A DNA stretch of 64,000 nucleotides from NCBI GenBank assembly GCA_017562135.1, contig QEYB01000377.1, positions 1-64,000 on the forward strand. Reading direction: 5' to 3'. Source of the DNA: Dipylidium caninum (Eukaryota; Platyhelminthes; Cestoda; Cyclophyllidea; Dipylidiidae). The notes below the pieces were generated by a model that worked only from the letters and a program-made list of their open reading frames with translations, ran no database searches and had not been told where the DNA came from. The position numbers and the translations under genes were made by a program. Below, in pieces: positions 2,341-32,143 of this stretch. Position 1 is the stretch's first letter, and each line of letters begins with the position of its first letter.

Positions 2341-2348
2341 GCGCTGTG

Positions 2349-2430
2349 ATTGGTCCACTTGCCGTGCGTACTGCGGCAAGCGCACCAATGAAAGCATGCA
2401 AGCAATGAGACAGTGGGAACGGCTTTAAAA
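2349..2430 (+). promoter_or_regulatory. CCAAT/TATA promoter-like cluster upstream of Ovo-like gene 1
   Basis: An inverted CCAAT box (ATTGG, 2349-2353), a direct CCAAT (2385-2389) and a TATA-like TTTAAAA (2424-2430) lie in the order and spacing of an animal core promoter reading rightward. A good splice donor (GTAAGT, 2633) follows 200 bp later and could end a non-coding first exon. The nearest gene downstream is Ovo-like gene 1. Similar clusters lie upstream of the other Ovo genes. No experimental start site can be inferred. Confidence 0.4.
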
Positions 2431-3310
2431 GCACAGATATTCCACACTGACTGAGACAAATAGTGCAGGGAGGTCGGGAGGAGAACTTTTTGTTGGACTT
2501 TCTCCAGTAGCGAAGAATATATGAACGTTGTAGTCGCACGACTCATTGGTGGCTTCGAAGGTTGTTGAGCTCGTACGGACCTTGGGGGGCCAAAGTGTGC
2601 GGATACTTGCGCGTCGGCCCACCGCAGACGAGGTAAGTTGTGTCGAATGCTGGTCGGACGGAGCGTTACCGGTAGGACCACTTGGTCTCTCCTATAGCCC
2701 ACATGAGGTGGAAGGAGGCTGTCGCGGTGACGAGGACGACGACTCATCGGTCGCCCTCCGATCTGCTCCCTTCGAGGGCATCTGAGTGGCGACTGAGGTG
2801 AAGGAGTGGACAGATATGCGGCACTTTTTGACGGAGGCGTCGCGAAGGGTGACCGGTCTGCGCGATGCAGGTGTCCCACCGACGCGTTCACGCGGTCACT
2901 CAGACGCTCGAGAGCATCCGCGCTCTGCTCTCCCCCACAGAGCCCACTGGCCCACCGAGTTGAGGTGGTTGGCGATTCTAGCTCCACAAGCACGCATTCG
3001 CAAGTGTACTCACCCGGTGACTTTTGCGCTTCTGTGGCATGAGCTGATAATGCGAAGGTCAGAGACGAATTGACATCAGCGCAGTTTGCGAGCACTCCTG
3101 GCCAGAATCGGGACACAGCACCGCGCTAAGGCCTGACTTGTCGTAGGCGGAGTTGGGAACGATGGTGAGTTTAGCCGAAAAATCGTTCAAATGTCCCGAG
3201 ACGGAGCAGGAGATAATGCAAGCCATGATAGTGGACGCCCTTCGAGCAGTCGGGCATACCGGAAAAGTTGGCAGTAAGTCATCCGTTTCTTCTCTCACGT
3301 TGCACATCAG

Positions 3311-4093
3311 GAGATGGTGGCTGAGGGGCAGTCCCTCTTCTGAGGTACGTCTTCGACGGCGATGCCATCTTCAACCCCTTTGCGCCCAATCGTCAGACCC
3401 AATTGCAGTACCTCATGCACTATCTGTGTAAGTCGCCTTCCACGTCTCCCACTCTGCCTGCCTGCCTGCCTGCCTGCTTGTCGGTGGTCCACTCCGGCGA
3501 GGCAGACGTCAGCCGTCATTGCCACCCCATTTACCATTCCTATTATTGCCCAGAGCGGTTGGCATTTCGAAGCTTTTTTCACTCTGTTCAAAGGTACCAA
3601 GAAATCGGAGAACCGCTACACTTGTGATTTTTGCCTCAGAGACTTCCACAGTCTGATTACGATCCACCAGCACCTGCTGACACACAGCTACAGCAAGTTG
3701 TTTGTCTGTGTGAGGTGTTTCAGGGGATACAACAGCCTCCTTGAGATGAGGTACCACGTGAATATCCATCGCCGTGAGTTGCATGTCGTCAGTGTTGTAG
3801 CACATCTCCCAGGAGAGCCTCATGCCTTACGCCTTCGTGCAGCACCTTCGTCGCCGATGCAAATTCGTGAGGAGAGCGAGGCTGCGCCCCCATGGAGGTC
3901 TCGTGGCCCGACCAGCAGGAGGAGGGTCACAAGGAGGAATCGGAGTCCGAAATCTGCGCCCGAGTCAGGTCGGGAGACGCCACCGCCCACCTCATGCGCC
4001 CGCTGCGGCATCAGTTTTAACCGGACAGATCTGCTGCTGGCGCACTTCGAGTTGCTATCATCCCACCAACCGGAAGATCATCAACAAAACTGA
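3311..4093 (+). CDS. Ovo-like zinc-finger gene 1, divergent and frame-disrupted
   Basis: This is the third member of the local Ovo-like family and is probably decaying. Recognisable exons are 3311-3427 (conserved pre-finger block YVFDGDAIFNPFAPNRQTQL), 3594-3773 (fingers 1 and 2, both C-x2-C...H-x3-H) and 3813-4093 (end of protein). The splice phases match those of the two intact paralogs, and the 180-nt middle exon has the same length as in gene 2. The third finger, whose paralogs read [VR]RPYxCxxC...QRCSLEGH, is lost: the region is Arg/Pro/Ser-rich and lacks both Cys. A last finger (CARC...H) persists with abnormal His spacing. In the first exon a TGA and a -1 shift (near 3340) interrupt the frame. 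An upstream ATG exon (3162-3273) is possible, but its phase does not fit. The final intron (39 bp) is a multiple of three with no stop, so it could be retained. It may be a pseudogene, or a functional two-finger gene with an assembly error. Confidence 0.6.
3461..3482. repeat. (TGCC)n microsatellite
   Basis: About five tandem copies of a CTGC/TGCC tetranucleotide lie inside the second intron of Ovo-like gene 1. Confidence 0.8.
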
Positions 4094-5137
4094 GCAGGCT
4101 TCTAATGAAGCAAGCTCTCGAAAATGATCAGCCTTGATGGGGAAGAGGACAAAACCGAATCGCCAACAGCCGTGCTTATTCCTCCACCCCACCAACTCGT
4201 CCACCGGAGTTGCGTCGTCTCTAAGAGGAGCGAGGAGCAGCTCCCACACCCCGCCTGTGAATGCGCCCAAAACCGCCCTCGTCCGTGCCAATGTAGCTTA
4301 CCCACTGACCCATGAGCTCTGCCACCACCAACCTGTCGCTCAGTAAATCGCTTTCCCACCGCACCCACCTCCCGCCTCCCACTTCCTGCTTCCTGCTTCG
4401 CGCCGCCTCACACCACTGACGCGCCGCGCCGCGCCGCATTCTGGTGGCTTCGTTAGCCCCCATGCGGCAGCCAAGAGTGCCGCGGAGAGGAAGGGGGCAC
4501 TCGAATAGGCTTTCCTGCGTTTTCTCACCCACCACACCCTCGAAGGAAAGGCTCGTCACCATCAGCCTAGTCCACGCCCAGTGGGGACACGGAAGTGGAC
4601 AAAGAGCGCCTCCTTCAATCCACGCCTCCACTCATGAGCTGTGACGTTGTAGGCGAGTAGAATGACCTCCCTCCAGGCAACTGCGCTTTCCACCTGCTCG
4701 CGGATGTTCCCACCACTCGCAGCCGCCATCGCCGACTGACGACTGATAAAAACCGTCCTAAGCAGAGTCGTTTCCGTGGCCATGAAAGCAAACGCAGAGG
4801 GAGGAGGAAGAGGAGTCTCGCTGCTGCCACCACTGCGTGGCCCGTAGACTACGACGCCAATTGACAGTCAGGACTAGAAGTGGGGACGCGCAAACAACGG
4901 TGAACTGACGGTACGTGCACTGCGAAACCGCTCCCAACACGAAAATGCAACACGTCCGTCAGGCTCTCAGGCAGACAAGAAGGAAGCCCGCCGGGACGGT
5001 GTTGGAGAGAAGAGATGAGGAGGCGAACGAAAGCACAATTTAATCGTTCTTGCAAGAGCAGCCGCAGAAAAGTCCGACCGCACGGGACGTTGAGAGAGAG
5101 AGAGAGAGAGAGCGGACAGTGCACCGAGTGACGAGGG
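4094..5137. other. Intergenic region between convergent Ovo-like 1 and eIF2-beta
   Basis: I see no gene here. A (GA)n tract lies at 5092-5112, close to the 3' end of eIF2-beta. Confidence 0.5.
5092..5112. repeat. (GA)n microsatellite
   Basis: An uninterrupted GA dinucleotide run of about 20 bases lies just past the eIF2-beta stop codon. Confidence 0.85.
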
Positions 5138-6300
5138 CTACTGCGTCTTCGCCCGAAATGGCGGCTCGTTTGCCCGTGACAGCCTGGAAGCCCGAGTGAC
5201 ATTCTTCACGGTCACTCGCGAGCCGCACATTTCGCACTGGAGGAAAAGGAGACGCGAGTCCCTCGACAGTTTGGTCTTCGGCGATTGGCATGTGCTGCAC
5301 AGTACGTAGGTGCCTGCAGGAGACGAAAAAAAAGACAGGGAGATGCATCTGTGAGGCCAACAACAACACCAAGAAAAAGCCGACAGCACGCGGGTCTACT
5401 TCATGGCAGAAGCCCTGAAACACGCGTCGCCACCAGGCAGGCCGACGCCCATTCACCACGCCTCCGACACGAGCAAAGGAGTGCACCAAGTCGCCTCACA
5501 ACTCGCCGTGCCAACAAGTGCACAGTGGAGGAGTGGGCAGGTTTGCAGCCAAGTTTGCCGACTCACGCGCATAATTCCGCAGAAGCGGTTCTATGTGCTT
5601 GGCCTGGTATTTGCCTCGAATGAGCAGCGCTCCGTTGGCGTCCACAGAGCCCGTGTGCCCAGCTCCGCGAACAGGTAGGCGGAGAGGTGCGACGGCTCCC
5701 GATTGAGTGAACGACAGATGCCGTTAAAGTTGGTGAAGTGAGTCTTCTTGGTACCCACTCGAGCCATGCACGGCGGTGCCATCACCAGACGACGCTTCAT
5801 GTCGGGCATGAGCTCCGGGTTTTTTGGCCTGGATTTGAGCAAATACCCTCGCCAATAGCATCTCATAGGGGTAGCCGGTAGTCGGTGGAGCAACACCGTC
5901 CACAGCACTCCTGCCGGCCGTCTCCACTTCTCTGCCGCATCGGTGTCCGTGGGGGTGCAGTGGCAAGGCCGGCGGCCTGACCACTAAAACCAGTAGGCTG
6001 AAGATCGGCCTCACCAAGAGGCCGGAGGGCACCCTTCTTCTTCTTCTTCTTTTCGCCGAACGCCAACTCGTTCAGCTGTTCAGTAATCTCAGTAACTTCT
6101 ATCGGCACCTCCTTGGCCCCCTGGGCAACGCCGAGTGGAGCGACAGCATCAACAACTTTGGCTTTCGTCGCCTTCTTTGCCGGTTCAGCAAGTTCAGTAG
6201 GCTTCGAAGCCGCAGCCTCCACAGTCTCCGCAGGCGGTGTTTCGATGGGAAGGGGGTTCTTTGGCTTCTTCTTCTTCTTGCTGGTGAAATTCAACGGTGC
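5138..6300 (-). CDS. EIF2S2: Translation initiation factor eIF2 subunit beta, frame interrupted by single-base indels
   Basis: eIF2-beta is part of the GTP-binding eIF2 complex that brings initiator Met-tRNA to the 40S ribosome. Two exons are visible: 6300-5567 and 5313-5138, joined by a GTGAGT donor and a CTGCAG acceptor. The N-terminal part has two lysine boxes (FTSKKKKKP and GEKKKKKKG), which in the family bind eIF5 and eIF2B-epsilon. The central part holds the gamma-binding and core motifs (YPYEMLLARVF, ARVGTKKTHFTNF, LSAYLFAELGT). The last exon holds the C4 zinc ribbon (CSTC...CEMC), ending in FRAKTQ and a stop. The reading frame changes at about 5876, 5820-5825 (six A where five are expected), 5655, 5195 and 5160. 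Each is a one-base indel, and the protein matches the family on both sides. The first exon is unresolved; an ATG at 6650 is a weak candidate. Retained introns argue against a retrocopy. Either a young unprocessed pseudogene or sequence errors would explain it. Confidence 0.85.
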
Positions 6301-6706
6301 CTACAGTGACCAAGTAAAAGTCACCAACGGGAACTGAGCCACCGCTCGACGAAGTTAACAATAACTGCAAGTCTCAATAAAGCACACTTCGAACCCACAG
6401 GTGCCCATCAATGCGTGCCAAGGAAAAGTTAGAATAAAGACGACGTTGGTCAGAGTTGAGAGTTGTCACTATGACGCCGCGATAACCAAGAACTATGACT
6501 GTCGCGGGCCACCTTGGAATAACATAAATTTCCTCTTCTCCTAACTCTGAAAGCGGGCATTTTCAACCTACTAGCTAATCTTTTTTAGCCGTGAGATATG
6601 AGGATGAGGCTGGGTTTCTTCACTGCCAAGTGGAATTGTTTCGCTTCCATGAGGTAGAGTGGATCTTGAAAGCCCCTCCGAAGGTGGTAACACGACCTCA
6701 TTTCTG

Positions 6707-6735
6707 ATTGGCTAGTAAATTCGCGTCAGGATTGG
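6707..6735 (-). promoter_or_regulatory. Paired CCAAT boxes upstream of eIF2-beta
   Basis: Two ATTGG elements (6707-6711 and 6731-6735, CCAAT on the - strand) lie 24 bp apart, about 400 bp upstream of the first recognisable eIF2-beta exon and in the right orientation for it. The transcription start is not resolved. Confidence 0.35.
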
Positions 6736-6739
6736 CTGG

Positions 6740-9700
6740 TAACAGGGGGAGGATTCCTCGGGGATCCGCATTCATCACGGGGAAGGTGTGAACGCGTCGA
6801 AGTGGGTCTTGGCCGGCGTCAAGACCAAAATTCTCCCAATGGGGGCCTCACGCAACCGTGACTGAATTGGCAGTTGTAATTGCCTCCACGCCAACCTCAC
6901 AGTGGCTGCGCAAGTGCCGGGTTGTGCTGAAGACGTCGGATGTCGATCACAGCAGACTAAAAGATGGTTTTAGACGAACATGCAAGCGCTCGCGGAGATC
7001 CACAGTCACGTGGAAGACGGCGGTCGCATGTCGCGTAGCAAGTCAGTCGAGGCGATGGACAACTTGCGACGAGTTTTTCGCACAAGCCGAACAACGGCGG
7101 GGTCTGTTTGGCTTCCTCCTCGCTGCAACCAACTCGGAGTGGAATGTCGACGCGGTGGTGGGCAGCGAATGGAGGGTTGGCGAGAGTCTGGAAAGAAGAC
7201 TTCGGCGCCCAACCAGCTTATTGCTTGAAGTGCTACCCCAGCTTGAAAGTAGTCAAGTGAGAATGAAATTTCGTCAGAGGGAAGATATTTTGTTTCGCTC
7301 AGGGCGAGTACAGCCGCTGAGCGCGTCAGATCACCGGGAGACCCGAGACGGGAACGCGACTCGACAAGACTTTGGGCGGGCAGGACGACGACCGCCGGAC
7401 GGGTGAGGGAGTTCGATGGAACGGGACAGCTCACGCCCGATACCGACGCGAAGTCCGCAACAACGTCCACGCCCATTTGCGTGGCCGGCCGTCGAGATCC
7501 TCCCCCTCCCTCATATTCAATGCCTGTCTCATAGTTTCCGAACTATTCCCCTTGCCCAGTTGGGCAGGCACTCGCAATGCAGAAACACAAAAGCGCTTCC
7601 GACGGGTTCCCTATTTCCTCCGTGTGTGTGTGTGAACATGCGCCAGTTTTAGATGTGATTCTCAAGGCGGCCACCGCGTAGGTACCAGTGGAAGTTATTT
7701 TAATTATATATAAAAAATGAGGTGAAAAACGAGCCATTTGTTTAGCAGGTATATTCAACACTCGTTTCATAGTTTCCGGCCAAATTGTTGGCAGTAAGTG
7801 ACAAGTGAGCGATGCCTGGAAATTTTTCATTTGGCCGAGGATGAGACAAATCCGCCCGCGACTGCCTTTGTGGAGCGAACTAAATCGCCTCACTCGCGCC
7901 TGAGCGCCGCCGGTGCCCTGGTGAGGCGCGTGTGCCCTCCGAATGAAGGCAAGTCGCAGATGCGCCTTACGGTGGTCTCCTTGAAGAAAGCGACACAGCT
8001 CGCGTTCTGACCCGTCGGGAAAGCCAAACAACGCCATTTATGAGCTCCATTTTTTCGTGGTTTTTGGACCACATCCGAATGGCGCGGATGCGTGGGTTCA
8101 AGTTCGGGGGAGCGATTTCGACCTAGCAACGGATAAGAAGATAGAAAAGAGAGCAGGTGACAGACGACGGGGTGTTGGAGACAGGCTGGGGGGTCGCGCC
8201 TTAATCCCTTTGACAAACATAAACTCGAAAAAATGGAAGTGACGACGAACGAGATTTGCGTGGTGCTCACGTCTCGCCGGTGGCACTCAGGTCCCGCGGT
8301 CCCAGGGCGCGAACGATGGGGAAGAGCGCGCCGGTCGCCGCTGTAGTGGCTCCTGTCAGCGCCTCTGGGAGCATTCTGCGCAGCGACGCGCCTCAGCAAC
8401 CCGTCCGCGAGGGCCGAGTGACGCGGCCAGGGGCGCCTCCCCGGGCCCCAAGAGCTCCAGCGGGCTCCGCGTCAACGGCGGCAGCAGTTAGTGGTAGCCG
8501 CGACCAGCCGCGGTGGAGGATCTGACGCCCTCGGAAGAATGCGCAGACAACCTCGGGCAGGTGGACGAGTTGGGCGTCTGGCCGCAGATCTTTCGATGCT
8601 CCGACTAGGTGTCGGAGCGCTCGTCGGAGGGAGTCGCCCGGACGAATTGGAGGCCGTCGGACAGGAGATCAGCGCCCCACCGGCTGGACTGCCTTGGTCA
8701 TTCCAGTCAAGCAGTGCCAAGTCGCTCGCATTGGTTTTCCGTCCCCACCCCCCCCCCGCAGTAAAAGTCACTCGAACTTTGAAAGGAGGCGCTGCTGCAA
8801 TCACGTCTGAGGGCAAGAGGGCTGCCCCCTCGAGCGGCATTGCCGGCGTCCGTGTCATATCCGTCGCCAGCTCGCTGGCACGCACTCACGCTCGAAGGGT
8901 GAGTAATGAGGAGGAGGAGGAGGAGAAGAGGCAGCGTTGCCCCTCCGCCCAGGTGGGCGCGTCTGTCCGGTGAGCCACGTCCGCCACGTCCGCCACGTCG
9001 ATCGCCTCGCCGCTTTCCCAACAAGACAAGAGCCGCGGCGAAAACGTCAACCGGGTCACTCAAGGGGGCTCCGTTCACGTGTCCCACATGGGCCGATCTT
9101 TATGTCTCAGTCCTCGTCAGCCGCCGTCTCGTCCCCCGGGCGTATTCTCTCAGTGGCCGCGGCACCGTCGCAGTGGAGAGCAGCAGCACGAGCACATCCG
9201 CTCTCGGTGCGCGCAACTCCCGACTCTGCCCTTTCTTCCACCTTCCTTCATCGCCGTGGCTCAACTTCGTGGTGTGTTAACCACCGGGTGGGAAACGACG
9301 AAAGAGTCGTCGAATGTGAGCAGAAAACGAAGAGGCGCAACTTAAAAATCACAACATAAATTGCGACCGACGGCGAAATAACCTCCGTCGGCGTCTACGA
9401 CTTTGCGCACTCGCTTGCGCCAGTCGTACGTGCCTTCTTGCATAAAGGAAGACAAAAACAAAAACACAATCCCCATTTCTGCAGTTAATAAACCCTTCGT
9501 GGTCTTTGCTTATTCTACTTCCTTTTCTCCCACAAATAACTGTTAATTGCAAAAATGGGAATAGTCGGTGTGTGGGTGGATGAGAGGAGTGTCGGGCGAC
9601 GAGTGTCGGGCGACTGTGGGGGGTGCGGTGAAATGTCACTTTTTTTGGAGAGGTGATTTGATTCCTCAACCGAAAGCGAGGCTTTTGGTGGTCGTCGCGC

Positions 9701-11195
9701 CCATTTGGCCATGCTGGTTGCTTCCTCCTCACAAGTTTCTTCGCGTGGATGCATTCAACATCAACTGCACGCCAGTGGACTCCGCCGCCGCTGTTGTGCT
9801 TCCGTCTGGCGGTGACGGAGAGAAAGAAGGAAGGAAGGAAGAAGGCACGACCTTCACTTGGACACTCCATCCTGCTCTGACAAGCGCAATTTTCGCTTTG
9901 TGGTGAAATTGTGGCTGAGGCATGTGTTCACGCGCTCTCTTCTTAGCCATCCATTGGTTTGCACCTTCGCGACTATCAGACAAAGTCCACTTTCCATCAG
10001 AAGCGGTAATTTGGTGGGAAAACGACGGCGACGGTGTGTTGGGGGGAAGCAGCGACGATGTCCGCTCGGTCTGGCGGTGGGACAATCGTCCTCGTCCATT
10101 TCGCGCTGAGCCTTCGATACAACCGCGGATCGCGCAGTCGTCGTCCTCCATTCCTCCTTGTGACCGACGTTAGCCGGTGAGGTTTCCTCGAGGCGCGTCT
10201 CAATGCCTCATCCGAAGAAATGAGCTGCTAAATCGACTCGAAGATACACTCGCCTTCTCCCGAAAGTCACCTCAGTCTCCGAACAAACACCCTCGCACCA
10301 AACACGGCAAAGTTGGTGCGCAGTCGAGACGTCCCCCTGTGTCTTCGAGGTTGATGAAACATCCGTGACGCGCAGATACGCCTTGCCTGACCCAGCAACC
10401 TAGCCTTGCGGTGTGAGGTGAAGGCGGTCTATCAGCTTGCCGCCCTCGCGATGGCTCTGGCACGGGCGTGGAGGTGCCTACCTTCTGACCTTAGATTTTA
10501 GATAAAAATCACTTGTTACCTTTTAAGACTCCCACATGGGGGAGGGGAGGAGAGGACGGGGGGCAGAATCAACAACACGAATTCAAGAGCAGGCACAAGT
10601 CTTCGCTCCTTTCCTCGGACGCAACTACTGAGGCAGGAGAAGTTGGTTTGGCGAATTAAACGCCTGTGGCTGGTTGCTATCATCGGTAGGTTCCAGTCTC
10701 CCCCCAATAAGGCTGCTCAAATACTTCTCTGGCGTGTTGCGCATACAACAACCTCGTTAAAACTGATTTCTGCGGACGCAGAAAAGTGCTTCCTGGTCAG
10801 TATTAGGGGGAAAATGGGCAAAACATTTGCATTCCTTGATCGTCTTTATCACCGTTTCAGTCTTCCTAATTATTCCTTGCGGTTTTAGGGTCATCGTCTT
10901 TCACTTAAGGGCGCCGGACTCTCTGTGGCATGCAAGGCAGAGTCCCAAGTCCACGCGGCGAACAGCACCATCTCACGGTTTTATCCCAATCGCATTTGGG
11001 ACGCACCCGCAGAACTCGGTCACGGCTAATTACTTCACGGCGCCCATCTACAAGCGTGGACCATAATAAAAGTCATTTATGCGGTTTAATTGGGGATTAT
11101 CAAAAAAAATAGGGATATTAATAAAGAGGCTGTTGGAGGGAGGGGCAACAGGGGGCGGGGGAGGCGCTACGCTTCTGAGCAGTGGCTGAACTGCC
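6740..11195. other. Gene desert between eIF2-beta and Ovo-like gene 2
   Basis: About 4.5 kb, mostly GC-rich. Overlapping open frames on both strands (for example 8472-9087 on both strands) lack any family resemblance or splice logic. Small tracts (GAGGAG near 8908, a GT run at 7621) are present. I cannot assign any gene. Given the developmental gene downstream, cis-regulatory sequence is plausible but not shown. Confidence 0.45.
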
Positions 11196-11199
11196 TCGA

Positions 11200-11279
11200 C
11201 CAATGGGAAGTGGCGAGCGGAGTCGCCGCAGCCAATGGGCGTGCAAAACGTGAGCAGTGTGGAATATTGGCATATTTAA
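11200..11279 (+). promoter_or_regulatory. CCAAT/TATA promoter-like cluster of Ovo-like gene 2
   Basis: Two direct CCAAT boxes (11200-11204 and 11232-11236) are followed by a TATA-like TATTTAA (11273-11279). The start codon of Ovo-like gene 2 lies 170 bp further on. A TTTTAG acceptor just before the ATG (11437) suggests a spliced 5' leader. Confidence 0.5.
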
Positions 11280-11449
11280 GGAAAGTCAGTCGAAAAGCGA
11301 ACACATCACCTCGGCCGGGGTGCCACTGGTCGTCCCTCGTGAATTTAACCACTCGAGTAATATCGCGTTAGTGTCTTAAGTCGTAGCAAAATTGTTGGAA
11401 GTTAAATTAAACCTTTGCCTTCTCCTGTTCATTTTAGCAACTTTCCCAC

Positions 11450-12859
11450 ATGAATCCCTTCTCCTCCTGGCAGTTCAGTCCTGTACTTGATCCCGCCTGC
11501 TCCCTCTTATCCTTCATCCAAAACATTTCCCCGTCCTCCTCGCACTCCTTCACTTCGTCCTTCTTCTCCACCAGCGGTTCCACCGAGTCGGAAGAACCGC
11601 TAGACTTGAGTGTGGGAGGAAGGAGGCGTGAGTTAGACCCGTTCGACTCGGAGAATGCATTCACACTCTGCCATCACCTCTATTCTACTAACCAACTGTA
11701 TGGAGGCTTGATAGAGCAATTCAGAAGAGACCTTGACGAACACGAGAGTTCAAGTGGCCAGCCTGTGGAGAGAAGCCAAGAAGCGGGGAGTGAAAACTTG
11801 GACGCTGGTACGAACGAAGAGAGTGTGAAGCTACGGTTCGACGACGAAAGGAGCGAGGAGGGCGCCCGACGAGGGAAAGATAACCTCGGTAGGGCTGGCG
11901 GTCCCGGAGGCGGTGGGAAGGCGCCGCTTATTTTCTATCATCCGGAGGAGCCAGGATCGCGAGAAATAGTTCGGGTAAGTCGCCTCCGTCCTGTCGCCTC
12001 AACCCTCCATCGTTGAATTAGGACATGCTACGGAACAAACACCCCGACCTGCAGTACGTCAACGACGGCGACGCTATCGTCAATCCCTTCGCGGTCGACC
12101 GGAAGCAGCAGTTGGCGCACCTGACCGCCATGTTCTGTGCGTTGTTCATTTCTACCCGATTTGATGCTAACTTCAATAACCGTGTATATTACGCTGTCAT
12201 GCCGAGAGTTGGCGGTTTTTGCCCCCTTCCCTTCATTCGGGTTGATGAGTGGATGCTTTGCCTGACTGGCAGGTAGGGAGAATGCCGGAGGCGGGTTCAC
12301 CTGCGGGGCGTGCGGACGCGAGAAAGAGGCGCTCCGCAGCATGCAGCAGCACCTTCTGTGCCACAGCGACAGCAAATTCTACCTGTGCGTGCGATGTCTG
12401 AAGGGCTTCAACGACACCTTCGACATGAAGCGTCACACACGTAAACACACGCGTGAGTTCACACCCCAAAAAGTTCACCCTTCTAACTTTTTTCGTCCCC
12501 GCGTCCGAGTTAATGCCATCGCACAATCGCATTTTACACCTTTTCCGCGTTTGCTGGATGCAGTGGTGCGGCCATATGCGTGCTCCCACTGTCCGAGTCG
12601 GTTCAGCCAGCGCTGCTCCCTAGAGGGTCACCTGCGGAAGGTGCACCGCATGCAACTGCAGTTCGCCCGGCGTCAGCGTCGCGAGGTCCTGCGAGTCTGC
12701 GAGCGATGCGGCTACGTCTGCAGCACCTACGCCAAGCTGCTCAGCCACACGGAGCGCGAGCACCCAACCGACCGAGACGCCCTCCATCGGATGCGCAAAC
12801 GCATCGCCTCCGCAGGCACCGCCGCGGGCAGTGGCGACTTACAGCCCAGATCCCACTAG
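11450..12859 (+). CDS. Ovo-like zinc-finger transcription factor 2 (Ovo/Shavenbaby/OVOL family)
   Basis: Sequence-specific nuclear transcription factor of the Ovo family, known for epithelial and germline roles. Exons: 11450-11974, 12022-12136, 12273-12452 and 12564-12859, all with GT-AG ends and matching phases (0, 1, 1), giving about 371 residues. The four C2H2 fingers are in family order: finger 1 (FTCGACG...HLLCH), finger 2 (YLCVRCLKGFNDTFDMKRH), finger 3 (YACSHCPSRFSQRCSLEGH) and finger 4 (VCERCGYVCSTYAKLLSH). The GFNDTFDxKRH and QRCSLExH strings are hallmarks of Ovo proteins. The usual TGVRPY linker before finger 3 reads TLVRPY and is split by an intron. The N-terminal region is Ser-rich with PLDLS at residues 50-54, a CtBP co-repressor motif. 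A conserved block (NDGDAIVNPFAVDRKQQL) lies just before the fingers. No SNAG motif is seen at the start. The frame is intact. Confidence 0.93.
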
Positions 12860-13662
12860 AAGGACACAGACTGAACCGACCCTTGGGTCTTTTCTGCCCA
12901 TTTCTTGACGCTTTGCACTCTGATTGTCCCCAAACCGCATTATTCGCTCCTTCATTAACACGAGCTCTCTTCCCTCAACCGCGACTATCTCCTCACCGTC
13001 CTCGAAACCATTGTGATGATTATGCACCGCTGTTCGCTCAGTTTTGCTTTTTTAATCCTCAAATTTCGTGAAGTATCATGCTTCTACCATCATGGCAACG
13101 TTAAGATTGAGTTGATGGGCCTCCACCTGGCGGTTGCCGTCACCAGAGGGAGACGATACAGCCCATTTCTCTTCGTTGGAGGCAGCCATTCCGTGCGGTC
13201 GTTGAGTGAGACACTTCGGCATGCACCTGCCTTGAGGAAGCCTCCTTTCCCTCTGCTCTCTCTGCCACAGGAAGGCGGAACGCGGAAACGCGGAGAGACA
13301 GGTTGGGGCTTCGTGTCGCGACCCCTTTTCCCGCCGAACTCTTCCACGGCTCCTCCACGGCATGGAGAGCCCGGCGCTGTGTCCATGTCTTTATCAAATT
13401 TCCCCGCACAACAGCCCAACTCCTCTCAGGCGAGTTGAACAACTTAAATGGAGCCTCCGTGGTTATTCCTGCGGGTGGAACAGCTCGCATTTACGGGGAC
13501 GAGGTTTAATGCGCAGCGAAAAACGTATTGCGTGCCTCAAGACTGGCGTGAACCCTCTCCAGACGGGCTTGCGAATCTCATGCACACGAAACACTTTGTG
13601 ATTTAAATTTAGTAAAATCAGGAAAATGATTTTTAAATGAATTTCGCCCTGATGGATTGGGG
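12860..13662. other. 3' flank of Ovo-like gene 2
   Basis: No further gene is recognised. It presumably contains the 3' UTR. I see no clear AATAAA signal close to the stop codon. Confidence 0.4.
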
Positions 13663-14225
13663 ATGCACGCCAAGGGGGAGAGGCACTTGGCCAGAGACTT
13701 CGAAAACCGAGTTGGCCCGAGAATCGCTGTTAGCAAAGAAGCGGCTTTCGAATCTCCGACCAAAAAATGAGAGAGAGAGAGAGAGAGGAGAGAGAGAGGA
13801 GAGGAGAGGCGAGGCGAGGCGAGAGAGGGGGGAACATTAAAGTTGACATAATGACAATTTGGGATTTTAGTGCTCTTTCACACACACACACACCACACAC
13901 GTGGAGCGACGGCGTGGACGATGATGCGTGCGGGGGGGCGCAACACTCACAATAATGAACAGCCCATGTGGGCACGTTTCGCCCCTCAGGTGGGCTTCCC
14001 CATGTATTCCTCAACCCCTCTGTTGTGTGCCGGCGGAGGAGAGGGGGAGGGGGTGGGGCCGAGGTCAGTAAGGGGTAGGATATGGCACATCCGCTTTGAC
14101 ATGATGATACCACACCACACTGTCAAAAATGCCCTTCTCCTTCACTCGTCCGGGAGATTGTTGTGGCCTCTTGAGGTCCTCCTCGCCCTCTGCTGTTGTG
14201 TGCCGGGCGGGGGGGTGGGGAGCCG
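13663..14225 (+). repeat. Dispersed/duplicated 0.6-kb repeat, copy A
   Basis: The same ordered blocks occur here and at 19566-20222 in the same orientation: a block with ACTTCGAAAACCGAGTTGG, a CGGCTTTCGAATCTCCGACC block, a purine (GA/GAG)n tract, a block with TTGACATAATGACAATTTGG, a (CA)n tract, a GTGGAGCGAC block, and a CTCTGTTGTGTGCCGGCGGA block. Inside the copy the last segment recurs in degenerate form about 170 bp later (14020 and 14190), so the unit is itself partly tandem. No transposase, terminal inverted repeats or poly-A tail are seen. It could be a segmental duplication that accompanied the Ovo duplication, or an unclassified repeat family. Confidence 0.85.
13766..13828. repeat. 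Purine microsatellite (GA)n/(GAGAG)n/(GAGGC)n
   Basis: A 60-bp pure purine-rich tract within repeat copy A. Its counterpart in copy B is shorter and differs in unit composition. Confidence 0.85.
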
Positions 14226-14780
14226 GGGTCAGCGGCCAGATATAACACATTTGCGGGTGCTGAAACAACTCAAACCAACAGTGCTACCATATTCTCTCAT
14301 CCGCAGAACGGGTTTAGCATGGTTTTAGCGTTGAACTGAGGGCTGTTTTATTGAAAAGAAAAGACACAACGTCGTCTGCGTGCGGTTGTCCCTGCGCAGT
14401 CTGGAAACAATTGCTGTTATTTCTCAAATTTGCATCCTCTCGCTCATGATCAACTCACTTGCGTAGTGTCATACTGGGGAAGTAGGGCTAGCTTTTGCAC
14501 ATCTCTGCAACCCATTCCCTTTTCCCCACAGACTCGGAAAAATGGCTTTATTTCCTGGTTAAGTGGAAGAGGAACGAAAAATGGATTTTCCACAATCGGA
14601 CACTATAGTAAAATTTAATCGTTTTGCCCTCCTAGTAAACTATTTTGTGGAAAACGAATAAAATGAGTATGTAACTCCGTGCTCGTCTAATGTTTCGATG
14701 TTTCTATTACGTATCTTAGATTTGAATATCCGAAACATTTTTGTGCTCAATTAGCCCTCGCGGTTCAGACCACCACGCTT
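14226..14780. other. No gene recognised
   Basis: Unique-looking sequence after repeat copy A. Nothing coding could be supported. Confidence 0.4.
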
Positions 14781-14785
14781 CTCCA

Positions 14786-14862
14786 CCAATCAGCAACCGC
14801 CGTGGGACGGAATAATATCATTGGTCGTAAAAGGGGCGCATTTCCGCAGAAGCCAATAAATA
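14786..14862 (+). promoter_or_regulatory. Orphan CCAAT/TATA promoter-like cluster
   Basis: A CCAAT (14786-14790), an inverted CCAAT (14820-14824), another CCAAT (14853-14857) and an overlapping TATA-like AATAAATA (14855-14862) form the same arrangement as upstream of Ovo-like genes 1 and 2. No coding gene is recognisable in the following 7 kb. It may start a non-coding RNA, a long 5' leader of Ovo-like gene 3, or be a relic of another family member. Confidence 0.35.
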
Positions 14863-17800
14863 CAAAGCAGCAAGCGGTCAGTTGGCAGTCTTCTTTGCTA
14901 ATCGTATGCAACATGTGAAATGAAAGGACATTGGCGAAATGTGCATAGGAGAATACGCCGAAGTGAATAGCATGAAGTGAAGGCGTTTAAGCTAATGGGT
15001 AATGGCAGAGGGCAGTCACTAAGCCCTTCACTAAAAATTTTTCCATGAGGTACCGTCTATCGCATTAGAAAAGTTCACTTTCCCAAAAGTTAGCATATAA
15101 ATGAGCCCTTAAGTGTAAACTGAGGTGAAGTGTTCCAACCCCATCTGGTAGGGATCACATTGGAAAAGGCTTTGAGACAAGTCTCAATGATAACAATGTG
15201 AGATAAGTGAAACACAAACTCGCACTTAAACGTATCCCTGAGTTAATATGAAAAGGAAACACGAAACCTATAATCCCACGTTAAGGCGGATGAGGGATGA
15301 CCCACCTGTGGATGAGGACGAGTGCAGTCGCTGGGGCTGCTCGAAACACTCGTGAAGTATTGAAACGCCTCCCCCCCGGATGACCCCGAAATATGAGTAG
15401 ATGAGAGGTGGGTTTATTACAACATCCCGATGATTGACTCCACCGCGTAAATCACTTAAGATTTACATGAAATTTTTTTTAAGGTTACGTCGCAATCGCG
15501 AGCGTACGAGGGAGGCCTTAGAGAGATCCCCTTTTTTCCTGCTCACGGGAATAATTTGCCATTTTATTCTCCTGCTCGACTTCAAACTTTCACCTCCCCT
15601 GTTGAGCTACGTACTCGGAGAAGACAACATGTGGAGAATCGACTTCATGTATCCTTGCTGACCAAGTAGCTTAATCGAGAATGTCGAGTTATTTTCTCCT
15701 TTTGTCCACGGCTGGTTAAACCACCGTCCTCTTGCCTTTGGAGACCCCAATCAAGACTTTCGCTACTAGGAGATTCTCTCGAAATGCTCCTACTTTATGC
15801 TAATGAATGTTGTCATGCTTTTGTCGTATTTTTTTGCTTATTATTCCTTCAGAGACGTCATATCAGCTTGACCACTCTTGGATGAGGGTGCGGAAAATTG
15901 TGCGGAGTTTCTGTTTGGACGACGTGATCACGACGTCGTCTCCTGCCAACAGTAGGCCTAAAAAATCCCATCTTTCAATCTTTTTAACAAGATTAATGAA
16001 AAGAGCTTAGCGGCATTTTCGACTAGATGCGAGAAATGCACTTGTCGGCACTAATGATGTCCGCGCCTCTGGCCTGTCCAAAAGATCATTCGCCCCTCCT
16101 CTGCGTCGAGTGCTTGTTTGGAGGCCCCGTCAAGGTGCTGCTTGAACCCCATTGAAATGACCAATCTGCGCCGAGCTTTGAGTCAAACCGTCCCAAACCC
16201 ATCTGGGGATCATGTGAAATTACATGGAAGGTAGAATGCTACGGTATCTTGGAAGGGTGGTCGATTTATTCTGGAACATTTGGCCATTTGCGGGTTTATT
16301 CCATCCTTTAAATTGCCAGGGGGAGTCGAATGCCTTGTGGGTGGAGAAGACTGCGGTGTAGCAGCTCATAACTCCCCAAATCTTACAGAATCTGTCAAGC
16401 AACAGCGTCCTCTTTTGCTTACAACTGGCATTACACGCCGCTGAAAGGCTTCATGCCAGTGTGGCCAGTTTGTCCTCCATTGAAGAGGCGAACGAACAGA
16501 CGAGGACTCAGACGTGTGGCAATTTGCGCGGTTGTGGAGAGCAGTTGACAAGGAGGGGAAAATGTGTCCACGCGACATGCAGGAAGTCCGTGTAACGCGA
16601 CGGTGAGTAGATGGATTCACGTCGCCTGCTGTAGGCTGCCTCCAAGTGAAGAAGTCCCCGTTCTGCCCTGGACAGTGGAGGACCGGCCCAGCAGCTCGAC
16701 TTCATTTCGCTGTCCATCGGCGTTCGCCCGAAGCGCCAAAGTGTCGGCACTTGACGACCGTCGGTGGCAACTTGCGCCACTCAACAGTCGGCCGACTGTT
16801 CCCTGACTAGACAAAGCGGTGATCGTCCCTGGCCCTCGAGCCTCCTCCTCCAACAGTTCAACCGTCGGTTTGTCCACTTGCGCAGGAAATGGCAATTGCA
16901 TGGGAGCAGGCAAACCTCTTCGATGAAGGTGGTTGACAACACGCAGGCCAACTAAACAATTCATTATGCATTTCGTCTACTGCCGGTGCGAGCAGGCACG
17001 AAAGCCTCCATCGGCGATTGCTAATTGGAACTGAATGAATTCCCTCTCGGCCGTAAACTGATTAAATCTACTTTAGCATCGCAACCTCAAATGGAAAGCA
17101 TTCATTTGAAGCACTTTCAAGAAGGCAGCAGAAAGACAACGACACCAACGAGTACTTTTGTTGGCACTCGACCCTTCATCCCTTGAAACGCCAACAACCT
17201 CCTCAGGACACGTCGCAGCAGTCCTGGCCACCATCGGGGCAAAGATCGTCGCCCCTCGGGCAAGCAGACTCGTCCAACAGTCGCGGACCGTCTCGCTCAT
17301 CATGGAAACAGGAAAGAGGGTGTCTTCGAAGCAGAGCTTACTCGTCTGTGGATGAGTGGAACAACGCCCCGAGGAGCAGCGCTTTTACCAGACCGCCACC
17401 ACCGACGCTCATTGCGACTGACCGCCCGCTCGCCAGTAGCCGCCGTGGCTGCCCAGGGAGACTGGGAAATCTCGGCCACTGTGGAGAACAAGCGCGCTCT
17501 CTTGCGCATCTCAAAGCAAATGAGGGTCGTCAAGCAAGGCCGAGCGAGGGGCGGTTAGGACTCTGCGACTGAAGACGACGGCTCCTCTCACCCGCCCACT
17601 GCAGAGGGGAGGAGCACGACGAATATGGACGTTTGCGACGCGAAGCGGTTGGGCGACGAGCCTCCCCACTGAGCGGCGGCCACAGACGGGGTGGAGGGGC
17701 GTCGGCGACGTGCCGAGGTGGGTGGCGCTCGAGTCCTTCTCCCGCGGAATGCCTCCCCGCGGCCTCGTCTACCGCCCCAGGCCGATCGCCCGTCTCGCGG

Positions 17801-19565
17801 TCGACGTGGTGACACTCGTGGGGTATGGCAATGGCCAACGCCGATGACCTGGCGAGGGGGTCGGGGGAGAAAAAAAGGCGGTGGGACGGGCGATCCCACA
17901 ATGGCCGTCGATGCCCGAGGCCACCGGTTGCGCCACTTCACTCCCGACCGCGGGTGACGAGGTCGTCTGCGCCGGCCGCGTGGGAAAAACAATTTGACGG
18001 CTGGCCACAGGCTCACACGCGGACACGCCAAACTCCATCAACCGCGCGGGTGCACGACCGCCACCGCTTATTTCACAACCTGGATTGAAGTGGCAAATAA
18101 AAAGAAGTCACTGCTTTGTTTGGTCGAAATGACGGAGGTATCCCGCGCGGGTCCCACACTTTCTCCGCCTCGGATGACCTCCTCACCGCTTCCACTCGCT
18201 GCGGACGGCCAGGGAAGGCTGGGAGAAACACATTCGCGTCCAAAGGGGTGAATTTCAACGTGGACGAGTGACGAGGAAAATGCTGCAATCGACGCGGAGG
18301 AGGGGAGAGGAGAGGAGAGGAGAGGAGAGAGAGAGGAGGGAAACATCGTGTCTGAGGTGACAACAGCGCCTCGTTGCCGGTGCTCGAGGCAGCCGAATGA
18401 GGCTGAGAAGGGAGAGCTCGTGCGTTCAGTGGGGCAGTGGTGAAGCACACTTCCAGGGCGTTGTGGCCGTTGACAAACTGTCACCTCAGCGGGGTTAACG
18501 ACGGTGTTGCGAGATCCACCGATGCCGCGGTTGCTGATCCGCCTGGAGGAGGCTGGGACTCGACTGTGTCGAGCAGCGCAGACGACGAAGGCGGTGCGAG
18601 GGAGGCCACGGACCGACGAAAACCTGTGTTTCTCGAATCCGTTCCGTCTCTTCCCCACGACATTTCGTGGCTGCGTCCTTGCTCCCCCAACCGTCCACAT
18701 TCTCTGACCCACGACGCAGGTCTGCTAGGCGAAACCCTTCGTGGTGCACTCAAGGGCGAGTCGATTTCGGGGACAGGCGCGGATGGAGGCGGGTTCGGCA
18801 TTCAACAGATCGGTGAAAGCCCTGCACCATGTGTGGGAGCTTCACACCTCGAAGATCTTACCATTTTCCCCTCCCAGCGCACAAAAGATTTGCCTCTCCT
18901 ATATTTTTGAAAGGTAGAATGTGTAAGAACAAAGTGCGAGTGGCACTCTAAATGAAGAAAAGCCGCTTTTCCCTCAACTTCCCCCAGCCAACCGCTCAGA
19001 CGTCTTCTGACCAAAGACGACGGGCTTAGTGCTCTCTACTGGGGCTGTCATTCTCTATCTTCCTCTCTCCCGCGGTGCGTGAGGTCATTCAGCCCTAATC
19101 AGCCTCCACCGGATGGTAAGAAACCGGAGGGTCTACGGATGCCTTCAACGTCACCTGCCTCCGTCGCAAACAGTCCGTCGCTTTCCTCGATGCTCTCGCC
19201 CCGTGCACACACTTGCTTACCTCGCTCCATCCACATATTTGCCAGTTCACAATGTTTTCTGCTTCGTTTATAGGCTTATTTAACTATCCGAAATGTGTTT
19301 ATCTCCAAGTTTAACTCAAACACGCAAAGTCCTCACTGAAATGACATGCCTGACAGAGGATGGAAAAGAGAGGACGGAGGAAGGAAGGTAGGGATGAAGA
19401 AAATTCCTGAGGAGGGTGTTTCATTATTTTCCTCTCCTCACTCTCTAACACAGAAGTGTCGGGGTGGCGGACTGTCGTGAAAATGCAACACGAGTTGTGG
19501 CCGCCACGGGGCAGCGTGGAGCCCGCTCGGAGAACTGCGTCCACAGTCGTGCAGCGCAAATCGGA
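14863..19565. other. Gene desert between Ovo-like genes 2 and 3
   Basis: 14.9-16.5 kb is AT-rich and stop-rich. 16.5-18.9 kb is GC-rich with long overlapping frames that show no homology. A (GAGAG)n tract lies at 18298-18340. I looked for further copies of the finger strings and of the pre-finger block and found none. Confidence 0.45.
18298..18340. repeat. (GGAGA)n purine microsatellite
   Basis: A tandem GGAGA/GAGAG purine tract of about 40 bp, similar in composition to the tracts inside the two 0.6-kb repeat copies. Confidence 0.8.
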
Positions 19566-20222
19566 AATGCACGCGAGGGGGGGAGAGACACATGGCCGGA
19601 GACTTCGAAAACCGAGTTGGCCCGAGAATCGCTGTTGGAATCGCTCACTTCGTTATGTCCTTTTTAGCTTAACTTTGTGAGGAGAGTTTGCAAAGAAAGC
19701 GGCTTTCGAATCTCCGACCACAAAAATGGCCCCCGGTGGGGCGAAGGGGGGAAAAAGACCATACGAGATGAGATGAGAGGAGAGGAGAGGAGAGGCGAGG
19801 CGAGGAGAGAAGAGGGGGAACATCAAAGTTGACATAATGACAATTTGGGATTTTAGTGCTCTTTCACACACACACACACACACACAGACACACACACGTG
19901 GAGCGACAGCGTGGACGATGATGCGTGCGGGGGCGGCGCAACACTCACAATAATGAACAGCCCATGTGGAGCACGTTTCGGCCCTCAGGTGGGCTTCCCG
20001 ATGTATTCTCAACCCCTCTGTTGTGTGCCGGCGGAGGAGAGGGGGAGGGGGTGGGGCCGAGGTCAGTGGGGTAGGATATGGCACATCCGCTTTGACATGA
20101 TGATACCACACCACACTGTCAAAAATGCCCTTCTCCATCACTCGTGCGGTGAGATTGTTGTGGGCCTCCCGAGGTCCTCCTCGTCCCTCTGCTGTGTGTC
20201 GCAGGGGGAGCCGTCGGCTCGG
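19566..20222 (+). repeat. Dispersed/duplicated 0.6-kb repeat, copy B
   Basis: Second copy of the repeat at 13663-14225, same orientation. Relative to copy A it has an insertion of roughly 45 bp after GAGAATCGCTGTT (about 19636-19685) and a different, longer stretch before the purine tract (19722-19775). The rest is close to identical, including the (CA)n tract and the GTGGAGCGAC block, so the duplication is recent. It lies 2 kb upstream of Ovo-like gene 3. Confidence 0.85.
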
Positions 20223-21188
20223 GGATGGGAAGGAGCTGACGATTAAATTGACAGGCATTTCATACAAATCAAAGATTTTTCCAACAATCACTTGATAATG
20301 CCCGGGGAGAATCTTGGACGGATTCCTCGAAAGCCGTCTGTCACCACACAGAGTAACTCAGAGTTCTCCGTCCGACGGCATTCCGTAACTTTATTTTCAG
20401 CTCACCAAGATTTTTCACAGGCTTTGGTGGGCTCAACAGGAATTGGTAATAATTTTGATGTGTCAAGGAGGGAACTCTTAGTGTTACTGGTGAGGCGAAG
20501 TTGAGAAGATCATCGTCGCATCTTTCGTCTCATCCGCTGACCTCATACGCTCAATGGGAGGAGAAAAAGTAGAATACCCAATCATTCGGGTCTTTCGACA
20601 CATTAACTAGCATTTCTGCTAATTAACTTTCGGCTTTCTTCACACTTAAACAAGTTTTATATTTTTTTTATCACCAGGCTGAAAAATGATGAATCCTATT
20701 GTCGTGCGCAGTAAACCAGGTTATTTGGTTGTGCGTCAGTAGCAAAAATTACTTCCGCGTTAGCTAATCAGTCAATCAGGAGGAGATTCGGCCTGTCTGG
20801 ACGATGTCAAATGAAACTTGCTAAAACCGCTCTTGACGCGCATCAGATGGAAAGGAATAAGGCTATAGAGGCTCGAGGTAGAGCAATGAGTTTTGTGTGC
20901 TAAAATATGAAAGAACGATAAAATCAAGGCTTTTTCGACGCTGCGGTCCGATCTCATCAGTCTACTTGTTATCGCCCTTGCAGCTGCATGCAGTACCCCA
21001 ACGGAAGGCAAATACGAGATAGGACGACTGTTGCCTGGCATTCTGCACTAAGCGATATTCCATTTCCCCACTTGTCATAATCGCAAGCCTGTTTTAAGTC
21101 TCTGCCAAAATTTAGCCTTACACAATCTAAAGAATATGTTTTTATTAAGCCACTCTTAATAAACCGGACATGTCGCTTCCCCATTCGA
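20223..21188. other. No gene recognised
   Basis: AT-rich sequence without supported coding exons. Confidence 0.4.
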
Positions 21189-21266
21189 CCAATTAGAAGC
21201 CACAAATTTCGTCCAATGGGCTCAGAGGAGGAGTGGACCAATCGCGTGAGGGGGCAATCTGATTGG
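21189..21266. promoter_or_regulatory. CCAAT-box cluster upstream of Ovo-like gene 3
   Basis: Three direct CCAAT boxes (21189-21193, 21213-21217, 21238-21242) and one inverted (21262-21266) lie within 80 bp, about 1 kb upstream of the Ovo-like gene 3 start codon. No TATA-like element follows in the + direction. The interval to the gene could contain a 5' exon and intron, because a TCTTATAG acceptor lies 43 bp before the ATG. Confidence 0.4.
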
Positions 21267-22269
21267 TCCCCCCACGGTTCGAGCAGGTTGCGTTCACCTA
21301 AAGCCCAGAGACGACAACAACCGACGTGCTCCGGCAACCGAGATGATTCGGTCTGTTGCTGTGCCACTTGTTACTCAGGCTGATGTGGCTGTGCCGCTGG
21401 GTGTACGAACTTGGCCAACTGCGACATGAAGGGGTGATAAAAGCGAGAAAAGCACGATTTCGTAAATCCGAGATTTAACTGAGCCCATTTTTAATCTCAC
21501 TGTGATATAGAAACTGTCCTGGGGGTGGATATGTCAATAAAGCCAAATGTATTATCATTGGCCTATAGTGAAGAGACAAAGTGTGAAGGAGATAAATGAG
21601 ACGAGAGGGTGCAGTAGATAAGTGTGATGCATTTGCTTCCACGGAATTGAGAGCTACGAGGACGCAGGGAGTAACGGGAATATTGCAATCATCGACAATG
21701 TTAGATATAAAGTGGCCAAAAAGAAAGTTTGACAACAAAAATGACCACGGAAAGAAAAAGCAAGAGGAGAATTGTGGACAAACTGGTGATTTAGGAAGAC
21801 TGCGAATAAGGGAATGCGTCTAACAACGCGTATATTTGAAGTACTTAAAACAAGTTAGTCGCAACTGACACAATGCCTAACCGTCGCCTAAATGGAGGGA
21901 TTTTCGACCCCGGTCAACTGTGCGTCCAGACTGGACGATGGAAAAACCGGGTCCCCGAGGTTTGCGGGGGCATGGGAGTGCAGCGCCCAGACATCCAATC
22001 GTAGCGGGACTAATCCGAACTGTTCGTTTTCCACTAATCCCAACACCACCAATGGCAGCGATATTACGTGATTTTCTTATTAAACTGTGCATTATTTAAG
22101 GCGATGGCGGCGTCATGAATTTGAATAGGTCGTCTTTAGGGGATTCTAGCGGGTCGGTTAATCGCATGAATGCGATTTTCAGGAAATTTGACGCCCTAAA
22201 ACGCCAAGTGCCTTCTGTCTTATAGGTCTTATCGCCCACCTGGCTGCTTTCGCCGTCTACTTCGCTTAC

Positions 22270-23516
22270 ATGGAGCTTCACAACTTTTGTCCCTTAAAAT
22301 CGTCCTGTCGTTCGCCCCCCATTTCCGAGTGGTCATCGTCGGCGTCGTTTACTGGCGAGTCCGTCGACTTTGACAGGCCTCTCGACCTGCGAGTCAAGCG
22401 GACAAGGAGTGGCCACGCCGAAGGCGAATCATCCGGCGTCGGTGTGCCAAATCCGCAGGACCCTCCCTCCTCCTCCTCCTCCTCCTCCTCCCACCAATTG
22501 CCCATTCCGAGTGCCTCGGGGTGGGACACAACGGCGAAAAGTGGGGAGGACGTGGAGCCGAGCGGTGGACAGTCGCGGGAGCGTCACCTTCAGCAGCAGG
22601 AGAAGAGCGGAGGACGAAGCAAAGCCCCCCTGATTTACTACTCCCCAACACCTCCAGGATCGCTTGAGGCGCTGCATGTAAGTTAGGACATTAACTTCCC
22701 CCTCCCTTCCTCTCTCCCTCCCCGAGGCGGCTCATCACTGCTTTTCCTGTCAGAAAATGCTGAAGGCTTCTGATCCCCGACTGGAGTACATTAACGACGG
22801 CGAGGCGGTTGTTAACCCCTTCGCTGTTGATCGCAAAACCCAAGTGGCCGATCTCACAATGATGCTCTGTGAGTTCCTCGTCCCGATTTTGTTAAAGTGG
22901 GAATCTTCCCGCCTCCGGTCCCCATTTCCGTGTGTTCCCCATTCTAGGCAGAGAGGTGGACGGCGGGTTCGAGTGCAAGGCGTGCGGTCGAAGGCGACGC
23001 GGCCTGCGAGGCATGCGCCAGCACCTCTTGTGTCACAGCGACAGCAAATTCTTCATCTGCGTGAGATGCTTGAAGGGTTTCAACGACACCTTCGACATGA
23101 AACGTCATACGCGAAAGCACACGAGTAAGTCGTCCTCTACGCCACTTTTTTCTTCTTTCCCCTTTCCACATTCTCCACAACTGCACTAACGCTCGACTCA
23201 ACTCACCTCCGTGGAATGTGCAGTGGTGCGTCCGTACGAATGTTCACAGTGTCGGAGACGATTCACCCAACGCTGCTCCCTCGAGGGCCACATGCGGCGG
23301 GTGCATTCGACGAGGTTCCACTTCCGTCCGCACCAGCGTCGCGAGGCCCTCCGTGTCTGCGAGTACTGCGGGTTCGTCTGCGACAGCTACGCCGACCTCC
23401 AGACGCACACGGAGAGCGAACACCCGAGCAGGGTCTACACACTCCTCCAGTTGCGAAGACGCCTGGCAGCGGGTCAGGGGAAATCCTCGTCCTCCGCCCA
23501 ATGCCCTTCCAATTAG
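22270..23516 (+). CDS. Ovo-like zinc-finger transcription factor 3 (Ovo/Shavenbaby/OVOL family)
   Basis: Paralog of Ovo-like gene 2 with the same four-exon structure and phases: 22270-22677, 22754-22868 (115 nt, equal to its counterpart), 22948-23124 and 23224-23516, giving about 330 residues. The four C2H2 fingers are intact (FECKACG...HLLCH; FICVRCLKGFNDTFDMKRH; YECSQCRRRFTQRCSLEGH; VCEYCGFVCDSYADLQTH). The N-terminal region carries PLDLR at residues 37-41, a CtBP-type motif, and a Ser run encoded by (TCC)n. Exon 1 ends in KAPLIYYSPTPPGS, matching KAPLIFYHPEEPGS in gene 2, so this is a second conserved motif outside the fingers. The pre-finger block (NDGEAVVNPFAVDRKTQV) is also conserved. 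The frame is intact. Likely a nuclear transcriptional regulator; target genes cannot be inferred. Confidence 0.93.
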
Positions 23517-30595: not shown

Positions 30596-30678
30596 ACAGG
30601 AGCACACACGCATCCGACTAGTTGTGCAGATTTTCAGTGTAAAGACCTCCCGGTCGAGGCGGAGGAGCCGACAGGGGT

Positions 30679-31928: not shown

Positions 31929-32143
31929 CTGTAAAAATTAAAATAAAGCGTTGCGGAACATTAAACGCTGACAACTGGTCGAAATTACATACCAAATATA
32001 AAGTAATAATAAATGATATAGGTTAAGATAAGGCATTTATCAAAGTAGACATCTTTGTCTAAAGCAATATAATAACGCAAAAATTTGAACAATGTGAGAT
32101 AAAGCTGAGTGTGGTAGGAAGAAAGGGTGGAAGTGCTGACCAT

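What the first reader, a model, noticed from the sequence alone, without database searches (positions are those of the whole stretch)
3311..23516. A local family of three Ovo-like zinc-finger genes within 20 kb
Seen: three + strand loci share the same exon order and phases and the same finger layout; two are intact, one is degraded. Known: vertebrates have several OVOL genes on different chromosomes, and Drosophila has one ovo locus. Inferred: tandem duplication in this lineage, with regulatory divergence across the long non-coding gaps. I recall no description of an Ovo cluster in flatworms.
Basis: partly seen in the sequence, partly recalled or inferred. Interest (0 to 1): 0.75.

Follow-up and report, generated by a model that had tools for sequence, protein, structure and literature searches.

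The report
Tapeworm tandem array of Ovo genes
A tapeworm contig carries a small tandem family of Ovo-type zinc-finger transcription-factor genes, two intact and one decayed in this window and a fourth probably just outside it, which gives a bounded set of duplicated developmental regulators to study.

Summary
Three + strand Ovo-like loci lie at 3.3-4.1, 11.45-12.86 and 22.27-23.52 kb. B (371 aa) and C (330 aa) are open four-exon genes with intron phases 0,1,1 and four C2H2 fingers. A is broken in this copy.

Beyond the window: a fourth gene, D, lies on contig C425 about 4.5 kb before a second copy of A; window 455-1031 aligns weakly, in order, towards D. The 14 matches below 1e-11 in the own-genome search are on three contigs: C807 (the window), C33 (a diverged second copy of window 9.8-37 kb) and C425. 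On C425, A reads open but has three fingers: finger 3 is gone and all four contact positions of finger 2 are changed. B and C keep the finger 2-3 contacts of taeniid Ovo.

B, C and D fall with taeniid Ovo, Mesocestoides outside (100/100); order inside is unresolved. E. granulosus has two Ovo proteins, so some duplication may be older than this lineage. The A-to-B link rests on C807 alone; C425 continues differently after A.

The parts
3311..3427 (+). Locus A, exon 2: TGA and frameshift when read from the acceptor before 3311; an acceptor before 3345 would avoid them
3594..3773 (+). Locus A, exon 3: fingers 1 and 2, open, identical in DNA to the C425 copy
3810..4090 (+). Locus A, remains of exon 4: no finger 3; finger-4-like CARCG...H; frame differs from the C425 copy near its end
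11450..11974 (+). Gene B exon 1 (PLDLS motif)
12022..12136 (+). Gene B exon 2 (NPFAVDRK module)
12273..12452 (+). Gene B exon 3 (fingers 1-2)
12564..12859 (+). Gene B exon 4 (fingers 3-4, stop)
22270..22677 (+). Gene C exon 1 (PLDLR motif)
22754..22868 (+). Gene C exon 2 (NPFAVDRK module)
22948..23124 (+). Gene C exon 3 (fingers 1-2)
23224..23516 (+). Gene C exon 4 (fingers 3-4, stop)
1031..6799 (.). Block shared with C425:117651-123373 (minus) at 90%; the likeness ends at 6799, just after a stretch (6031-6530) that is identical but for one gap
9782..37018 (.). Stretch lying along the whole of contig C33 (27,254 bases) in pieces, about 10.7% substitutions

Best explanation
This is a tandem array of Ovo/OVOL-type C2H2 transcription-factor genes in a tapeworm near the taeniids, most likely in the order D-A-B-C on one strand over about 27 kb, made by local duplication of one Ovo gene within the cestodes. 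Shown: four loci with Ovo fingers in one genome; exon phases conserved in B, C and, as read, D and A; A next to D on C425 and A, B, C in a row on C807. Inferred: B keeps the parental role; C reads the same core DNA site (same contact residues in fingers 2 and 3) but has its own N-terminus and flanks, hence other timing or partners; D has a changed finger 3; A drifted to three fingers with changed contacts and is open on one copy and broken on the other. The PLDLS/PLDLR motif of exon 1 (recalled as a CtBP docking motif) suggests that B, C and D repress transcription at least in part.
For: Intact B and C with equal exon phases. D and an open copy of A on C425. The 14 own-genome protein matches below 1e-11 lie on C807, C33 and C425. 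B, C and D in one clade with taeniid Ovo at 100/100. B and C side by side on two contigs, C807 and C33. dN/dS 0.22 for C and 0.26 for B against the C33 copies. Contact residues. Window 455-1031 aligns weakly and in order towards D.
Against: C425 continues after A into single-copy sequence that is not the B side of C807, and the end of its second arm does so too. The base composition steps from about 0.45 to 0.56 GC at that point of C425. Exon 4 of C has 2 synonymous and 5 non-synonymous differences against C33, so no constraint is visible there, and both C33 copies carry indels. D's exon 1 is not in one frame. A scored no better (3.8e-9) than an unrelated finger gene on C276 (3.9e-9), so another copy as diverged as A could be missed. 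No expression data.
Confidence: 0.7

Rival explanations
1. Two separate Ovo loci: a D-A pair (C425) and a B-C pair (C807/C33). The A block at the left end of C807 is a segmentally duplicated or misjoined copy.
For: Both arms of C425 run from A into sequence other than the B side. Window and C425 are identical over 6031-6530 apart from one gap, just before they part at 6799, as at a join.
Against: The A block of C807 also follows C425 upstream, towards D (weak). C425 itself has a GC step at the break and a palindromic end, so it may be the wrong contig.
Confidence: 0.25
2. Some of the copies come from older, separate Ovo lineages rather than from a local duplication within the cestodes.
For: Finger 2 reads FNDTFD in this genome, in taeniids and in a nematode row, but FNDKYD in Mesocestoides, Spirometra, trematodes and Cichlidogyrus, so hidden paralogy or reversion at the stem is possible. 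A cannot be placed (end branch at the limit).
Against: B, C and D share one stem with taeniid Ovo at 100/100. The B search of the own genome listed no FNDKYD-type gene at comparable score.
Confidence: 0.08
3. Reading errors and redundant contigs explain all but one or two genes.
For: C33 ends and the second arm of C425 look unpolished: Ts/Tv about 0.3-1.0 in most bins and many gaps. C425 is palindromic around 130.3 kb.
Against: B and C lie on the same contig and differ strongly in protein; D differs from both. C33's polished middle differs from the window with Ts/Tv 1.5-1.8 and few gaps, so it is a truly diverged copy.
Confidence: 0.03

Closest known systems
Taeniid Ovo: E. granulosus P0001 (A0A068WPX9), T. 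crassiceps P0002, T. solium P0003
   Same: Four fingers, PLDL motif in P0001 and P0002, NPFAV module, contact residues DFDR and QCSG in fingers 2 and 3; B is 53-59% identical over the aligned part
   Different: One such protein per species in the hits shown; whether they lie in an array was not testable here
E. granulosus 'Protein ovo' P0015
   Same: A second Ovo protein in a taeniid; like D it has QRS in finger 3 and RCVH after it
   Different: Orthology to D neither shown nor rejected (AU p 0.33); no PLDL motif in its predicted N-terminus
Neodermatan single Ovo (Schistosoma, Clonorchis, Spirometra, Mesocestoides)
   Same: Same pre-finger module and finger layout
   Different: FNDKYD in finger 2; one listed protein cluster per trematode species
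Animal Ovo: Drosophila ovo/svb, vertebrate OVOL1-3, planarian ovo (recalled; germline role of Ovo from two passages of PMC5216385)
   Same: Family of four-finger C2H2 regulators
   Different: Vertebrate copies are dispersed and Drosophila has one locus (recalled); here copies lie in tandem, one with three fingers

Membership tests
Ovo/OVOL C2H2 family | Four C-terminal C2H2 fingers in Ovo spacing | tested here: met
   B, C and D have four, the C425 copy of A has three
Ovo/OVOL C2H2 family | Ovo signature residues in fingers 2-3 (FNDTFD.KRH, F.QRCSLE.H; recalled, and present in rows named Ovo) | tested here: met
   Met in B and C; D has QRSTLE in finger 3; not met in A
Ovo/OVOL C2H2 family | Best database relatives are proteins named Ovo, and tree placement with them | tested here: met
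   for B, C and D; the open copy of A found no relative at E <= 0.1 among 182 candidates
Ovo/OVOL C2H2 family | Binding to an Ovo DNA site and regulatory function | not testable with these tools
   Needs binding assays
Local tandem duplication | Adjacent copies with the same orientation and the same exon structure | tested here: met
   A, B, C on C807; D and A on C425
Local tandem duplication | Copies more related to each other than to genes of other species | tested here: inconclusive
   B+C+D is in the 17-row tree at 63/58; B+taeniid not rejected, p 0.23

The most novel reading that the evidence does not exclude
One tapeworm lineage has turned a single Ovo gene into a four-gene array whose members differ in the residues that touch DNA: two keep the old code, one has a new finger 3, and one is a lineage-private three-finger factor, open on one haplotype and broken on the other, that is, a transcription factor caught while being gained or lost.
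Probability: 0.35. Interest if true: 0.55.

Novelty: new member of a known kind. Interest (0 to 1): 0.4.

Why it matters
Ovo factors control germline and epithelial fate and, in planarians, the eye (recalled; germline role also in two passages of PMC5216385). Tapeworms have no eyes and a rebuilt body plan, so a local expansion of this regulator, with recoded DNA contacts, is a bounded set of genes to test for tapeworm-specific roles. The case also shows how diverged second copies and a palindromic contig end in such an assembly can hide or inflate gene copies.

Tried and rejected
First tree (21 rows): one row was cut wrongly (Cichlidogyrus) and two nematodes were in; it drew C with the nematodes at 87/57. 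Rejected. For some searches I dropped the two nematodes and the partial Schistocephalus row; one search used 10 rows, one search used 17 (A left out). In some searches one residue of D at an exon joint was typed wrongly (L for S by the split codon); one search repeats the tree with it mended: the 100/100 clade stays, B+D falls from 81/86 to 79/82.

Library searches: Pfam gave only generic finger models with the scores that matter; NCBIfam gave one chance hit far below its cut-off; PDB matches listed are generic finger proteins (60 of 99 shown). The open copy of A found no relative. Rfam and tRNA scans of the window: none.

That all frame breaks are reading errors: likely for the ends of C33 and the second arm of C425, not for A in the window, which differs from the first arm with Ts/Tv 1.34 and whose last-exon change is shared by the second arm (that arm may stem from the same reads). 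That C33 is a paralogous segment and not a second haplotype is not excluded: window 37-47 kb has no second copy. One further pair of a short and a long contig was examined, C644/C817, 5.3% substitutions, Ts/Tv 2.05; it shows that such pairs exist, not how common they are.

Papers: ten searches, nine on Ovo and one on a tapeworm genome. No listed title or abstract start describes an Ovo cluster in flatworms; I saw listings, and passages, no whole paper.

Full report
What is in the window. It is the first 64,000 bases of contig C807 (539,948 bases) of an assembly of 106.3 Mb in 920 contigs. The best relatives of gene B are Echinococcus and Taenia proteins at 53-59%, so the host is a tapeworm near the taeniids; the species was not identified.

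Genes. B (11450-12859) and C (22270-23516) each have four exons, GT/AG introns, phases 0,1,1, and read as 371 and 330 aa without internal stop. Both carry PLDLS or PLDLR in exon 1, an NPFAVDRK module before the fingers and four fingers in the Ovo layout. A (about 3311-4090) keeps fingers 1 and 2 in exon 3, but from the acceptor before 3311 exon 2 meets a stop and a frameshift, and finger 3 cannot be recognised. Exon 2 could start at a later acceptor, before 3345, which avoids that stop; this is a reading, not a test.

Rest of the genome. A protein search with B listed 108 matches at E <= 10 from 97 scored candidates; the 14 below 1e-11 are on C807, C33 and C425. Locus A comes next at 3.8e-9, level with an unrelated finger gene on C276 (3.9e-9), so a copy as diverged as A elsewhere could have been missed; by DNA, the A block was found again only on C425.

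C33 (27,254 bases, the whole contig) lies along window 9782-37018 in pieces, with breaks of up to 1.3 kb, at 10.7% substitutions. In its middle (window 24-30 kb) Ts/Tv is 1.5-1.8 with few gaps, as in true divergence; towards both ends Ts/Tv falls to 1.0 or below and gaps multiply, as in unpolished sequence. I read C33 as a diverged haplotype with raw ends; a paralogous segment is not excluded. Window 37-47 kb has no second copy. One other such pair, C644 and C817, was examined: 5.3% substitutions, Ts/Tv 2.05.

C425 (144,794 bases) holds on its minus strand gene D (exons 2-4 open, exon 1 not in one frame) and, about 4.5 kb further on, a copy of A that I read as open through exons 1-4 (its first exon and a 39-base last intron are inferred). 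Around 130.3 kb C425 turns back into an inverted, noisy second copy of both. Where window and first arm differ over window 3404-6840, the second arm agrees with the window at 119 sites and with the first arm at 21, while it alone is odd at 527; so it carries the window's version of A with many raw errors. It shares the change that shifts A's last exon. Window 455-1031 aligns weakly but in order with the stretch between A and D (pieces at E 3e-5 and 0.06), so D should end roughly 1.4 kb left of the window (my estimate). After A, C807 goes on to B, while C425, and the end of its second arm, go on into other sequence that is single-copy where searched. Either a contig is misjoined, or the haplotypes differ in structure, or there are two loci; reads would decide.

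Selection. Between C and its C33 copy, over 317 codons free of indels: 26 synonymous and 20 non-synonymous differences, dN/dS 0.22. By exon: 15 and 15 in exon 1, 5 and 0 in exon 2, 4 and 0 in exon 3, 2 and 5 in exon 4; the C33 copy has indels in exons 1, 2 and 4. Between B and its C33 copy: 33.5 and 32.5 over 316 codons, 0.26, with 52 codons left out for indels. Between A and its open copy: 3 and 9 over 153 codons, 0.92, although exon 3 is identical over 180 bases (all). B and C thus look constrained as wholes, with fingers 1-2 of C most clearly; A does not.

Tree. With 17 rows (exons 2-4; A, two nematodes and one partial row left out) B, C and D fall with taeniid Ovo at 100/100; Mesocestoides is next (99/97), then Spirometra (97/94), then the monogenean and trematodes. 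Inside, B+D has 79/82 and B+C+D 63/58, neither firm; AU tests reject none of B+C (0.34), D+P0015 (0.33), B+taeniid (0.23), and none of those (0.17-0.44). E. granulosus has two Ovo proteins in the hits, the trematode species one listed cluster each; clustering at 90% and missing annotation limit such counts.

How it likely works. By the usual helix numbering of C2H2 fingers (recalled), the contact positions of finger 2 are D-F-D-R and of finger 3 Q-C-S-G in B, C, E. granulosus P0001, T. crassiceps and T. solium. Mesocestoides, Spirometra, the monogenean and the six trematode rows, nine in all, differ there only by Y for F. D has Q-S-T-T in finger 3. A has S-L-E-Y in finger 2 and no finger 3. 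P0015 and Hydatigera, whose predictions lack part of the region, could not be compared in full. So B and C should read the same core site and differ in expression or partners, D a shifted site, and A should bind differently or poorly. The PLDL motif suggests CtBP-type co-repression (recalled); two contigs hold 2-Hacid_dh_C domain matches, not identified further. This paragraph is inference.

Verdict. It is a small tandem expansion of a known family with an unusual three-finger member; no such cluster in flatworms turned up in the nine literature searches on Ovo, which cover open-licence papers only.

Noticed in passing
window 33543-34193 (+) and 38337-38846 (+): Exon-like frames of a ribosome-biogenesis gene like URB1: Npa1 domain at 1.6e-12, and NopRA1 at 1.8e-5, the latter below its curated cut-off.
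   Followed up: no
window 42281-43051 (-): Frame with the Broad-minded (TBC1D32) C-terminal domain, 2e-11.
   Followed up: no
window 13729-14201 and 19686-20199: A non-coding direct repeat of about 0.5 kb, 87% overall with blocks of 95-100%, between B and C; copies also on C33, elsewhere only short matches of about 35-70 bases.
   Followed up: partly
L031-L033 (C425:117264-144794): Contig end is an inverted palindrome centred near 130.3 kb whose second arm looks unpolished but carries the other version of A.
   Followed up: partly
alignment A1: Finger 2 reads FNDTFD in taeniids, this genome and a nematode row, but FNDKYD in Mesocestoides, Spirometra, trematodes and a monogenean: reversion or hidden paralogy.
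   Followed up: no
window 9504-9926: Matches C425:101612-101991 on the other strand sense than the A block, at 79%; part of it is a repeat found on several contigs.
   Followed up: no
L042 and L043: Contig C644 (43,238 bases) copies part of C817 at 91-95%: another diverged second copy left in the assembly.
   Followed up: partly
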